Position numbers and translations under genes: made by a program. The notes beneath the pieces are model-generated. The model did not search any database. It was given only the letters and a program-made list of their open reading frames with translations, and was not told the DNA's origin. Source: a virus. Taken from it: a stretch of 22,824 bases of DNA. Of this stretch, positions 9,012 through 22,824 are shown piece after piece. Location of the stretch: positions 1 through 22,824 of the IMG/VR virus record IMGVR_UViG_3300036652_000658. One strand, 5' to 3'. Positions within the stretch are counted from its first letter, which is position 1; each line of letters begins with the position of its first letter.

Positions 9012-9087
9012 TGGCACCGCGACGTGGACTTGAACCACGAACACCTGACTTCAAAGGCCAGTGCTCTACCAATTGAGCTATCACGGA
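9012..9087 (-). tRNA. tRNA-Gln, anticodon UUG
   Basis: This 76-nt cloverleaf is read on the minus strand. The acceptor is TCCGTGA / TCGCGGT with G73 and an encoded CCA. The D-stem is GCTC/GAGC. The anticodon stem CTGGC/GTCAG has loop CTTTGAA, giving anticodon TTG for codon CAA. The variable loop is GTGTT and the T-arm is CGTGG-TTCAAGT-CCACG. Position 1-72 is a U-U mismatch and 5-68 is a G-U pair. An unpaired 1-72 and G73 are compatible with glutaminyl-tRNA synthetase recognition, which in E. coli favours a weak 1-72 pair. It lies 6 nt after tRNA-Pro on the same transcript. Confidence 0.92.
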
Positions 9088-9093
9088 TCAATT

Positions 9094-9170
9094 TGGTCTG
9101 TGTGGGTGGACTCGAACCACCGACCTCAGCCTTCCAAGGGCCGAACGCTGACCAACTGCGCTACACACAG
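9094..9170 (-). tRNA. tRNA-Pro, anticodon UGG
   Basis: This 77-nt cloverleaf is on the minus strand. It has a perfect 7-bp acceptor CTGTGTG/CACACAG with C1-G72, A73 and an encoded CCA, the usual proline tRNA signature. The D-stem is GCGC/GCGT. The anticodon stem CGGCC/GGCTG has loop CTTGGAA, giving anticodon TGG for codon CCA. The T-arm is GGTGG-TTCGAGT-CCACC. Its 5' end lies about 10 nt downstream of the promoter -10 box, so the primary transcript needs almost no 5' trimming. Confidence 0.93.
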
Positions 9171-10667: not shown

Positions 10668-10828
10668 GGCAGATACCTAGCAATCACATCGTAGAAGATG
10701 CCGCAGAAGTAGATGGCGATCAGTCCAATGATGATCTTGATCCAGACTTGGTCGCGAGCCTTGGAGCGCTCAAACTCAAGGGTTGCGGCGTCTATCTCTT
10801 CTTGGGTGAGCCAAGGGCGGTTGTTCAT
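10664..10828 (-). CDS. Small single-pass membrane protein (54 residues)
   Basis: The start reads MNNRPWLTQEEIDAATLEFE, followed by a charged helix, then a hydrophobic segment VWIKIIIGLIAIYFCGIFY (about residues 28-46) and a short tail. This predicts a cytoplasmic helix followed by one membrane span. The ATG overlaps the HNH gene stop (ATGA) and its stop overlaps the zinc-ribbon start (ATGA), which strongly supports translation. Function is unknown. Confidence 0.65.
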   Translation of the reverse strand: MNNRPWLTQEEIDAATLEFERSKARDQVWIKIIIGLIAIYFCGIFYDVIARYLP

Positions 10829-11316
10829 AGTACGTTTCCTTCGTGAAGTTCTCGCTTTTTCGCCACATAGGCGGCATGCGCCTCCTCTGGCGTGTCAAAG
10901 CCGCCCAAATAGATTTGCTTGCCATTCAGCCAAATTTTGGCGCGGTATTTCCCGCCATTCAAATGCACACCAATGAACCCCGTCTTGTTTGGCCGGACGC
11001 CATTGCGCTGGTTCTGGCAGTTGATCTGATTGCTCACATCTCTTAGGTTCGCGATGCGGTTGTCATTGCGAACGCCGTTGATGTGATCTATCTGCCCTTT
11101 TGGCCACTCTCCATAATGAATAGCCCAAGCAATCCGGTGCCCTTTCAAGACCGCTCCAGGCAAATTCACCTGGATGTACCCAGCGACGTCCAAGCACTTT
11201 GCTTCTTTGCCCAGCAACGTAGAGGCCCGCACCTTGATCCAAGTTAAAGCCCCCGTTTCCGGGTCGTAGGCCAAGCGCTCTTTAAGCTCCTGAGGGGAAT
11301 AGATCTTTTGCGGCAT
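10825..11316 (-). CDS. HNH endonuclease with AP2 DNA-binding domain
   Basis: A protein of 163 residues. An N-terminal NUMOD-like stretch (YDPETGALTWIK) leads to an HNH_3-type nuclease with H60-R61, the core IDHINGVRNDNRIANLRDV (about 76-94) and a trailing Asn pair. The C-terminal AP2 domain reads TGFIGVHLNGGKYRAKIWL followed by IYLGGFDTPEEAHAAY (about 112-150). Such free-standing enzymes nick or cut DNA site-specifically and usually spread as selfish homing genes between phages. Both active-site and DNA-binding parts look intact. It sits in the nin region behind a 16-bp perfect palindrome, and its stop overlaps the next start. It may instead assist packaging or replication. Confidence 0.88.
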   Translation of the reverse strand: MPQKIYSPQELKERLAYDPETGALTWIKVRASTLLGKEAKCLDVAGYIQVNLPGAVLKGHRIAWAIHYGEWPKGQIDHINGVRNDNRIANLRDVSNQINCQNQRNGVRPNKTGFIGVHLNGGKYRAKIWLNGKQIYLGGFDTPEEAHAAYVAKKRELHEGNVL

Positions 11317-20300: not shown

Positions 20301-20660
20301 ATGAAATTTCTGATCGACAAGACTTCTTCTTGGGACAGAGAAGAGGCGCCCCATCCTGCTGCGTTTCAAGGGCCACTCCCGAGCCTGCGGACAGAGGTTC
20401 GGACATGCCGCACGATTGAAGAGTTTGACTCTCGATTTGGCGACCGGGAAGGCACATGGACCAGCAAGGGCCAGAACCACCGCACATGCCCTGATGGCAT
20501 TTGCCGCGAAGTCCCCCAGGTCGGTACGGCTTGGTATGTGGAAATCGAAACTCTCGCCGATCTTTTAGACTTTGCCGGGAGCAATGGCGATCTGGTGATT
20601 TCCAACAATCCGCGCGTTGGCTGCCCTGAGTTGGAAATCTACGACGACTACCGGGAATGA
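20301..20660 (+). CDS. Hypothetical protein
   Basis: A protein of 119 residues: MKFLIDKTSSWDREEAPHPA at the start, RTCRTIEEFDSRFGDREGTW in the middle, and NNPRVGCPELEIYDDYRE at the end. Mixed alpha/beta content with scattered Cys. ATG 20301 is preferred over an in-frame ATG at 20289 because GGAG lies 6 nt upstream of it, while nothing suitable precedes 20289. No family is recognised. Confidence 0.65.
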   Translation: MKFLIDKTSSWDREEAPHPAAFQGPLPSLRTEVRTCRTIEEFDSRFGDREGTWTSKGQNHRTCPDGICREVPQVGTAWYVEIETLADLLDFAGSNGDLVISNNPRVGCPELEIYDDYRE

Positions 20661-20824
20661 CCATGCACCACGACCCATTTTCCCTTTGGGTTGCAAAAGC
20701 CATCGCTGACTGTGGGGGCGACAGTGCTGCATACCTGGCAGAGATAGAGGCGGAAGTTACCCGCTTGCGCGTCATCCTGCCTTATGGCACACTCTGTTTT
20801 GTCGATGTGCTGAACCCACAATGA
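20657..20824 (+). CDS. Small hypothetical protein before the structured RNA
   Basis: A protein of 55 residues: MTMHHDPFSLWVAKAIADCG, then a helical stretch SAAYLAEIEAEVTRLRVILP and the tail GTLCFVDVLNPQ. ATG 20657 overlaps the upstream stop (ATGA); a second ATG two codons later is an alternative. The stop at 20822-20824 lies about 12 bp before the terminator-like hairpin. No family is recognised. Confidence 0.55.
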   Translation: MTMHHDPFSLWVAKAIADCGGDSAAYLAEIEAEVTRLRVILPYGTLCFVDVLNPQ

Positions 20825-20835
20825 CAAAGACACAT

Positions 20836-20912
20836 GAGGCCTCTTTCTCATGCGCTCAGCCGAAAGGCAATGGTGGGTTCAGCACCAGAGCGCAGCAGAA
20901 AGAGGCCTTTTT
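20836..20912 (+). ncRNA. Three-way-junction RNA element with built-in terminator
   Basis: AGGCCTCTTTCT (20837-20848) pairs perfectly with AGAAAGAGGCCT (20897-20908), and TTTTT (20908-20912) follows. Inside, after a 2x2 internal loop, TGCGCTC (20851-20857) pairs with GAGCGCA (20888-20894). It encloses two hairpins: GCC-GAAA-GGC (20859-20868, GNRA loop) and TGGTG-GGTTCAG-CACCA (20871-20887). The outer stem and T-tract make an efficient terminator. The inner junction goes beyond what a terminator needs and suggests a structured RNA. I do not recognise a named family. Confidence 0.6.
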
Positions 20913-21174
20913 GCGTTCTATCGACCTCTCTGCATGCGGAACGTCGGTGGTGCAGTCAGCACAAGTCCGGTACACGAGCAAGCCAAACCGGACAGCGTGG
21001 GCGAATTCCTAGAGCGCGGCGGTGGGCGAAAGTCCGATAGTCTGGGATAGCGTAATGCGACGGGCATGGCTCCGGGAAGCATTGACGTAGAGCGAACTGT
21101 TCTCCAGGAGACGGTAAGGCTACGTTTGCTCTGAACAATCACCAAGAAGCATTGTTACTTTAAGAGGGATAGAT
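20913..21174 (+). other. Non-coding stretch with several stems upstream of ERF gene
   Basis: These 262 bp lack a credible gene: short ORFs exist in several frames but none has a ribosome-binding site or a protein-like composition. Stems visible are GTGC/GCAC (20950-20962), a perfect GTCCGGT/ACCGGAC (20965-20993) and GGGC-GAAA-GTCC (21024-21035, GNRA loop). ACGTAG/CTACGT (21085-21125) competes with AGAGCGAA/TTTGCTCT (21089-21132), and AACAAT/ATTGTT (21134-21156) follows. It may hold the leader and promoter of the recombination genes, though I could not place a good promoter. Confidence 0.45.
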
Positions 21175-21792
21175 ATGAATGTCTACCAGAAGCTGAACAA
21201 AGCCAGAGCTGACTTCCATCAGCAAAAGCTGATCAAGACCGGCCACAACAAGTTCGCCGGCTACAACTATTTCGAGTTGGGCGACTTCCTGATCCCGGCG
21301 CTCTCCATCTTCAACGAAAACGGCCTTTGCGGCATCGTGTCGTTTGGCGCCACAGAAGCCGCCATGCGCGTCGTGGACTGCGACAAGCCCGAGGACATGA
21401 TCGTTTTCACGTCGCCGCTGTCAGAGGCCAATCTGAAGGGCTGTCACCCAGTGCAGAACGTTGGCGCGGTCGAGACGTATCAGAGGCGTTACCTCTGGCA
21501 AGTCGCGCTGGAGATTGTCGAGCATAGCGCAGTAGATGGCGCGCAGGTCGCCGGCAAGAAGCCGGGAAAGATTGCTGTCAAGGAAGGCATTGGCGACGAT
21601 CTCCCAGAAGACTGGAAATCCTACCTCAAGGGCCTGGCCTTTGAAGTGAAAGAAGACGTTGACGCTGGCCGTCTGGATGACGCAAAGAAGCGCATCAAAG
21701 ACGCAGCCCTTGAAGACGATCAATACATCTACATGGATCGCCAGCTCGACTCCAAGACCCGTTCCGCACTCAAGCCAAAGGCACCAGTATGA
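21175..21792 (+). CDS. erf: ERF-family single-strand annealing recombinase
   Basis: A protein of 205 residues. The N-terminal domain reads MNVYQKLNKARADFHQQKLI, then TGHNKFAGYNYFELGDFLIP (about 22-41), a FNENGLCGIVSF segment, and VQNVGAVETYQRRYLWQVAL (about 94-113), which are the ERF hallmarks. The C-terminal ~80 residues are charged and helical. ERF proteins (P22 Erf type) form rings on single-stranded DNA and anneal complementary strands during recombination and circularisation. GAGGG lies about 7 nt before ATG 21175. The stop overlaps the SSB-like gene (ATGA), a common pairing. Confidence 0.9.
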   Translation: MNVYQKLNKARADFHQQKLIKTGHNKFAGYNYFELGDFLIPALSIFNENGLCGIVSFGATEAAMRVVDCDKPEDMIVFTSPLSEANLKGCHPVQNVGAVETYQRRYLWQVALEIVEHSAVDGAQVAGKKPGKIAVKEGIGDDLPEDWKSYLKGLAFEVKEDVDAGRLDDAKKRIKDAALEDDQYIYMDRQLDSKTRSALKPKAPV

Positions 21793-22106
21793 CCCAGTAT
21801 GACAACACCAACCGTGGAGTTCTCTTCATCAACGACCGCAAAGAAGAGGGCAGCAACAAGCCGGACCGCACTGGCTCCATCAACGTTGACGGCGTGGAAT
21901 ACTTCCTCGACGGCTGGATAAAGTCGGGGCAGAAAGGCCAGTTCCTGAGCCTTTCCATCAAGCGCAAGGACAAGCAACCACAGCAGGAGAGCCGCCCGGC
22001 CCAGCGCCCGCAGCAACCACCACAGCAACGCCAGCAGCCCCCACAGCGGGGAAACGACAGCTATGGTGGTGGTTATCAAGACGATGACAGCGCCCCACCA
22101 TTCTGA
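21789..22106 (+). CDS. SSB-like DNA-binding protein
   Basis: A protein of 105 residues. The N-terminal ~60 residues (MTQYDNTNRGVLFINDRKEE, then GSINVDGVEYFLDGWIKSG and FLSLSIKRK) look like a small OB-fold beta-barrel. A Gln/Pro/Arg-rich linker (about 63-88) leads to the tail DDDSAPPF (98-105), which resembles the acidic C-terminal tip of bacterial SSB used to recruit partner proteins. Overlap with the ERF gene by 4 nt supports a joint role in single-strand handling. It lacks the length and motifs of a canonical SSB, so a diverged or functional analogue is the best wording. Confidence 0.7.
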   Translation: MTQYDNTNRGVLFINDRKEEGSNKPDRTGSINVDGVEYFLDGWIKSGQKGQFLSLSIKRKDKQPQQESRPAQRPQQPPQQRQQPPQRGNDSYGGGYQDDDSAPPF

Positions 22107-22146
22107 TCAGCCTGGCTATTTGATACCGACCTCATTGGAGCAAGAC

Positions 22147-22824
22147 ATGAGCACACCTGAAATCAACATCACTTCCCGTCACATCAAGTACGGCGCTATC
22201 GCCCTGATGGCCGCCATCGTTCTGGCTTTCTGCTGGCCGCTCTACACAGTGCCCACAGGCCATCGCGGCGTCATCACCGTGGGCGGCGCAATCAAGGGCA
22301 TCGAGCCGGAAGGCTTCACGCTTATCTGGCCATGGCAGAAGCTCAGCGTGTTCAACGTGCGCGCCGAACAGGCCAGCATTGAGAACGCCGATGGCGCCAC
22401 TGCTGACCAGCAACCCGTGAAGACAAGCCTTGTGGTGCGCTACTCAGTGCTACCCGACAAGGTGGCCCACGTCTTCGAGCAATACAGCCGCGACGGCAAC
22501 CTTGACTCGTACATCCAGACAGCCAGCATGGATGCATTCAAGGCGGTCACGGCACGCTACTCCGCCCCCGACCTGATCGCCAAGCGGCCACAGGTAGCAA
22601 CGGACATCGTTGCCCAACTCCGAGCCAAGGCCGGCGTGTATGGCGCGCAGATCATCAATGTGGACATGACCAACTTCTCCTTCAACCCGGCCTACATGGC
22701 GGCGATCAATGAGAAGGTCACGCAAGAGCAGTTGCGCCAAGCGGCCGAGAACAAGGTGCTCACCGTCAGCGCCCAGCAAAAGGAAAAGGTCGCCATCGCC
22801 GAAGCCGAAGCCACGGCCCGCATC
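22147..22824 (+). CDS. SPFH/band-7 (prohibitin/HflC-like) membrane protein, cut by window edge
   Basis: The frame is open from ATG 22147 to the right edge, giving at least 226 residues. The N-terminus has a single membrane span (about 14-33, YGAIALMAAIVLAFCWPLY) followed by TVPTGHRGVITVGGAIKGIE and PEGFTLIWPWQKLSVFNVRA, the start of the SPFH domain. The helical stretch towards the edge (AAINEKVTQEQLRQAAENK, KEKVAIAEAEATA) is the usual coiled-coil extension. In bacteria such proteins form membrane rings around FtsH protease (HflKC). GGAG lies 6-7 nt before the start. Its role in a phage is unknown. Confidence 0.85.
   Translation, partial: MSTPEINITSRHIKYGAIALMAAIVLAFCWPLYTVPTGHRGVITVGGAIKGIEPEGFTLIWPWQKLSVFNVRAEQASIENADGATADQQPVKTSLVVRYSVLPDKVAHVFEQYSRDGNLDSYIQTASMDAFKAVTARYSAPDLIAKRPQVATDIVAQLRAKAGVYGAQIINVDMTNFSFNPAYMAAINEKVTQEQLRQAAENKVLTVSAQQKEKVAIAEAEATARI

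What the first reader, a model, noticed from the sequence alone, without database searches (positions are those of the whole stretch)
20836..20912. Three-way-junction RNA ending in an intrinsic terminator
Nearly every base between the 12-bp outer stem and its T-tract is paired: a second 7-bp stem, a GNRA hairpin and a 5-bp stem with a 7-nt loop. A simple terminator needs only the outer helix. The conserved-looking inner junction suggests a small RNA or a regulatory switch deciding whether transcription reaches the ERF recombination genes. No known family comes to mind, so this may be undescribed.
Basis: partly seen in the sequence, partly recalled or inferred. Interest (0 to 1): 0.7.

Follow-up and report, generated by a model that had tools for sequence, protein, structure and literature searches.

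The report
Phage antisense RNA with self-matching terminator
A phage RNA folds into a transcription stop signal whose inner loop is an exact mirror match to the RNA just before it, and related phages keep this match while changing its letters, so the RNA probably lets a phage recognise and switch off transcripts of its own kind.

Summary
The three-way junction and T-tract at 20836-20912 are real (-45.6 kcal/mol, z = -7.5) and match no Rfam family. The 3' hairpin of the junction (seqB, 20873-20885) is a perfect 13-nt complement of a stretch just upstream (seqA, 20807-20819); 0 of 3000 shuffles reach this. Downstream lies a structured RNA block (20935 to about 21160), 80-82% identical over 91 nt to blocks in two environmental phage alleles. 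Those two and three more alleles (L082, L085, L098-L100) have the same plan: seqA, then a junction terminator enclosing seqB, then a structured block. Their flanks are nearly identical, but seqA/seqB is hypervariable and stays complementary (8 of 13 pairs changed on both sides, 0/500 shuffles). In all six alleles the modelled nascent RNA prefers seqA:seqB while polymerase is over the T-tract; blocking seqA restores the terminator. Best reading: an attenuator that also releases an antisense RNA, working like P4 CI, P1 C4 and Gifsy-1 IsrK, but matching neither Rfam C4 nor isrK. It is not an erf leader: erf relatives lack it. Switching and action in trans are inferred from models, not tested.

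The parts
20663..20824 (+). 53-aa ORF whose last codons contain seqA; its stop overlaps the ATG of the next small ORF (ATGA)
   Evidence: no family match
20798..20828 (+). Upstream hairpin displaying seqA; loop 20810-20816 CUGAACC
20807..20819 (+). seqA, GTGCTGAACCCAC, exact complement of seqB
20833..20852 (+). CATGAG...CTCATG hairpin that occupies the 5' arm of the terminator in the alternative fold
20836..20912 (+). 77-nt three-way-junction RNA ending in an intrinsic terminator (P1 20836-20857/20888-20909; P2 20859-20868 GAAA loop; P3 20871-20887)
20873..20885 (+). seqB, GTGGGTTCAGCAC, inside P3; loop 20876-20882 GGUUCAG is the complement of the seqA hairpin loop
20908..20912 (+). T-tract of the terminator
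20821..21012 (+). 63-aa ORF running through the terminator; possible translated leader, no relatives as protein
20935..21160 (+). Conserved structured RNA block shared with L082 and L085; hairpin GTCCGG/CCGGAC with a G-C, G-U, A-U pair series
21175..21792 (+). erf gene downstream (not a fixed partner of the element)

Best explanation
A phage antisense-RNA attenuator. As the transcript emerges, seqA pairs with seqB and delays the terminator, so transcription can continue into the downstream RNA block and genes. If seqA is occupied, by a ribosome finishing the 53-aa ORF or by an already released 77-nt RNA whose loop matches seqA, then the three-way junction forms and transcription stops, releasing another 77-nt RNA. 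This makes a self-reinforcing, sequence-specific silencing loop that could act on an incoming phage with the same seqA. Shown by sequence or computation: the fold, the 13-nt match, covariation of the match in related cassettes, and two-state behaviour in energy models. Inferred: that the switch works in cells, that the RNA acts in trans, that it gives self-specific silencing, and what the downstream block does.
For:: strong junction plus T-tract; 13-nt complement, 0/3000 shuffles; five related alleles in environmental phages with near-identical flanks and variable seqA/seqB; own partner is best in 6/6 alleles (-15 to -26 kcal/mol against -3 to -15 for non-cognate); 95% of cells paired, 8 of 13 pairs changed on both sides, covariation score 0.57 against 0.20 in shuffles (0/500) and 0.05-0.12 when slid; extended pairing beats shuffles in all five (0-1/500); in all six alleles P(seqA:seqB) is 0.99-1.00 with RNA ending 12 nt short of the T-tract end, and blocking seqA restores terminator pairs. 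P1 C4 has the same topology and size, with target copies upstream and downstream.
Against: The window allele is a single sequence; its own junction does not match the covariance model of the relatives' junction, so the covariation evidence reaches it by architecture and by the shared downstream block, not by alignment of the junction. No promoter was found just upstream in the window, whereas the relatives have an extended -10 (TGWTATANT) there. No significant second target was found downstream, unlike P1 C4 and P4 CI. In the full-length window RNA the terminator form wins at equilibrium, so antitermination depends on kinetics. seqA:seqB could also coexist with the outer stem as a pseudoknot, which was not modelled.
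Confidence: 0.55

Rival explanations
1. Cis-only attenuator: seqA:seqB is the antiterminator of a translation-coupled leader (ribosome position on the 53-aa or 63-aa ORF decides), and no RNA acts in trans.
For: seqA covers the end of the 53-aa ORF and abuts the next ATG, and the 63-aa ORF crosses the terminator. needs only one transcript.
Against: The relatives have a promoter just upstream and no reading frame kept open through the leader in all alleles. A cis pair gives no obvious reason for the two strands to diversify while the flanks stay nearly identical.
Confidence: 0.25
2. Ordinary processive terminator; the inner structure and the upstream match have no function.
For: Strong stem plus T-tract is enough for termination.
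Against: 13-nt match at 0/3000 shuffles; the same architecture with covarying match in five relatives.
Confidence: 0.07
3. Leader for a protein- or RNA-mediated antitermination system (Q- or put-like), with the downstream block as the antitermination element.
For: In the relatives the cassette lies at the nin-terminase boundary, where lambda has PR'-tR' and Q acts.
Against: Explains neither the hypervariable complementary strands nor a block placed after the terminator; no Rfam match.
Confidence: 0.08

Closest known systems
Phage P4 CI RNA (seqA/seqB/seqC transcription-termination immunity)
   Same: Small RNA whose seqB matches an upstream seqA in its own transcript; termination is the regulatory outcome (PMC4825925).
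   Different: CI is processed from a longer transcript; here the RNA ends at an intrinsic terminator. No downstream seqC above chance. No sequence relationship seen.
Phage P1/P7 C4 antisense RNA (Rfam RF01695)
   Same: 77 nt, long P1 stem, P2 tetraloop hairpin, P3 hairpin with the antisense loop; target copies annotated upstream too (a1, b1) (PMC5320573).
   Different: No Rfam C4 match in the window, while P1 scores 68.8 bits in the same search. One 13-nt antisense segment instead of a' and b'. T-tract directly after P1. The next gene is erf, not icd/ant.
Gifsy-1 IsrK and STnc1160 (Rfam isrK)
   Same: Terminator-ended small RNA followed by a stable RNA block conserved at nucleotide rather than protein level; next to a late antiterminator gene, comparable to the place of the relatives.
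   Different: IsrK activates its downstream target and its partner is downstream. No Rfam match.
Lambda PR'-tR' late leader
   Same: In the relatives, promoter plus terminator at the nin-to-terminase boundary.
   Different: Lambda's leader has no hypervariable self-complementary pair (general knowledge); the window copy lies upstream of erf instead.

Membership tests
Rfam C4 antisense RNA (RF01695) | Covariance-model score at or above the gathering score | tested here: not met
   No match in the window record at E <= 10, nor in the records of L084 and L085; P1 control 68.8 bits. No Rfam match in L098-L100 at E <= 0.5.
Rfam C4 antisense RNA (RF01695) | P1/P2/P3 three-way-junction topology of about 77 nt | tested here: met
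Rfam C4 antisense RNA (RF01695) | Antisense loops complementary to targets in its own operon, upstream and downstream | tested here: inconclusive
   Upstream perfect 13 nt; downstream not above chance.
Rfam C4 antisense RNA (RF01695) | 5' end made by RNase P | not testable with these tools
   Needs RNA data.
P4 CI-type termination immunity RNA | seqB pairs with seqA in its own leader, complementarity kept across variants | tested here: met
   Window 13/13; five related alleles covary.
P4 CI-type termination immunity RNA | Second target copy seqC downstream | tested here: not met
   Downstream duplex energies not better than shuffles.
P4 CI-type termination immunity RNA | Trans-acting silencing of the same leader (immunity) | not testable with these tools
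   Needs experiment.
Rfam isrK | Covariance-model match | tested here: not met
   Not among matches up to E 10 for 20600-21250.
Intrinsic (Rho-independent) terminator | GC-rich stem directly followed by a T-tract | tested here: met

The most novel reading that the evidence does not exclude
A modular, hypervariable RNA self-recognition cassette of environmental phages: interchangeable junction terminators, diversified seqA/seqB identity tags and at least two kinds of downstream structured RNA are reshuffled, and the released RNA silences any transcript with the same tag, giving RNA-based immunity groups outside the C4, CI and IsrK families.
Probability: 0.35. Interest if true: 0.78.

Novelty: new variant of a known kind. 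Interest (0 to 1): 0.62.

Why it matters
RNA-only immunity and self-termination is known from a few model phages (P1/P7, P4) and a related switch from Gifsy-1. Here the same logic appears in uncultivated phages with no Rfam match, with several alleles that differ almost only in the two recognition strands. That gives a natural test set for whether such tags define RNA immunity groups. The downstream RNA block, shared by cassettes with unrelated junctions, is a second undescribed structured RNA.

Tried and rejected
Window DNA around the element against phages, plasmids and E. coli genomes: no match. L082 and L100 elements against phages: no match. Exact terminator tail in viral contigs: none. 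Genome-wide exact pattern: four hits inside unrelated sequence, taken as chance. Covariance models of the downstream block (R1) and of the relatives' junction (R2), each over two samples of 399 genomes (order and phylum of an Acidovorax genome, chosen as a guess at the host group): nothing, which is weak evidence of absence because no positive genome is known. Upstream regions of erf relatives: no comparable element, so an erf-leader function was dropped. Coding explanation for the downstream homology (63-aa ORF): rejected for the shared part, since frames shift between window and relatives. Downstream seqC: not above chance (for L098-L100 the upstream slices of that call were cut short and were redone). 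Weak plant microRNA hits in the low-threshold Rfam scan are taken as chance. The seqA:seqB probabilities printed used coordinates off by one base and are void; they were redone.

Full report
What is there. It ends in a five-base T-tract. No Rfam family matches at the gathering score or meaningfully at low threshold. The record is a 22.8-kb IMG/VR fragment of a tailed phage with an SU10-type portal and adaptor, a terminase, NinG, ERF and single-strand binding proteins.

What was missed. Bases 20807-20819 are the perfect complement of 20873-20885, which forms most of the 3' hairpin of the junction. In 3000 dinucleotide shuffles a match of 13 nt never occurred; 11 nt or more occurred in 0.3%. The upstream copy is itself displayed in a hairpin whose 7-nt loop CUGAACC is the exact complement of the 7-nt junction loop GGUUCAG (and sequence). 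Two competing structures are therefore possible.

Relatives. A search with the 63-aa ORF that crosses the terminator found four viral contigs through a DNA stretch downstream of the terminator. Over 91 nt it is 80-82% identical to 20935-21024, and the homology is at nucleic-acid level, since the frames shift. Directly upstream of that stretch the relatives also have a long three-way-junction terminator with an upstream complementary strand. A pattern from that terminator brought in three more alleles. Two of the five alleles carry the window's type of downstream block (L082, with identical copies in L083 and L084, and L085); three carry another type (L098-L100). The window carries the first type behind an unrelated junction (its junction is not found by the relatives' model). 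The parts thus seem to be exchanged as modules (inference).

Covariation. The five relatives are nearly identical outside seqA and seqB, yet differ strongly inside them. Of 13 seqA:seqB pairs, 8 have changes on both sides; 95% of cells pair; four of five measures beat all 500 shuffles, and sliding the partner by one to three columns destroys the signal. G-U pairs occur, which points to RNA rather than DNA pairing. Each seqA binds its own seqB best in 6 of 6 alleles. Helices of the junction itself vary little, except the hairpin that carries seqB. Caveat: these are five related sequences and the number of independent events is not known.

Mechanism. With RNA ending 12 nt short of the end of the T-tract, roughly what has emerged when polymerase is there, the model gives P(seqA:seqB) of 0.99-1.00 and essentially no terminator stem in all six alleles; making seqA unavailable brings the stem back. 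Full-length RNA favours the terminator in four alleles including the window, and seqA:seqB in L082 and mostly in L099. So occupancy of seqA would decide termination. A ribosome at the stop codon of the 53-aa ORF would cover seqA in the window; the released 77-nt RNA could also bind it. The second route gives self-reinforcing silencing and explains why the two strands diversify together. These steps are inferred.

Downstream block. With the window, L082 and L085 aligned, RNAalifold finds 60 pairs, 11 of them kept through changes on both sides; in the hairpin at 20965-20993 one pair runs G-C, G-U, A-U through the three sequences. With about two independent lineages this is suggestive only. Its function is unknown; by position it corresponds to STnc1160 behind IsrK.

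Context. In erf relatives the upstream gene usually abuts or overlaps erf and no such RNA is seen; the window has 350 nt there. In L084 and L098 the cassette lies between NinB/NinG-type genes and terminase genes, with a conserved extended -10 just before it (TGWTATANT). The window shows no comparable promoter, so there the cassette would be read from an upstream operon promoter (inference).

Known systems. P1 C4 has the same size and topology, with annotated target copies upstream and downstream. P4 CI uses upstream seqA and downstream seqC to cause termination, and IsrK is a terminator-ended RNA followed by a stable RNA conserved as nucleotide sequence (PMC4825925). A. baumannii carries many C4-like RNAs that vary in the a' loop (PMC5320573). 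The window element works like these, but fails the Rfam C4 and isrK tests and lacks a downstream target, so it is filed as a new variant, not a member.

Noticed in passing
L098 (- strand, below 7411), L099 (7090-7660), L100 (- strand, below 4567): A second kind of structured block follows the same junction terminator (GTACTCCACACGATAGTAAGAGCCGC...), with an insertion in L098 and L099 relative to L100; no Rfam match, found only in these three contigs.
   Followed up: partly
L084:4193-4687 (-), L085:2472-2732 (-), L098 homologue: An HNH-like ORF of related sequence lies just downstream of the cassette on the opposite strand in three of the relatives.
   Followed up: no
window 9012-9170 (-): Adjacent tRNA-Gln (ttg) and tRNA-Pro (tgg) genes next to the terminase region.
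   Followed up: no
window 22063-22824 (+): Incomplete ORF matching PHROG 200 ('lipoprotein'); by eye it looks like a membrane-anchored SPFH/prohibitin-type protein, directly after erf and ssb.
   Followed up: no
window 20950-20962: GTGCAGTCAGCAC in the downstream block resembles seqB (10 of 13 bases); L082's block has AGTTGTTTGATA resembling its seqB. May be degenerate copies or chance.
   Followed up: partly
window 10825-11316 (-): ORF that by eye looks like an HNH/AP2-type homing endonuclease, beside the NinG gene.
   Followed up: no
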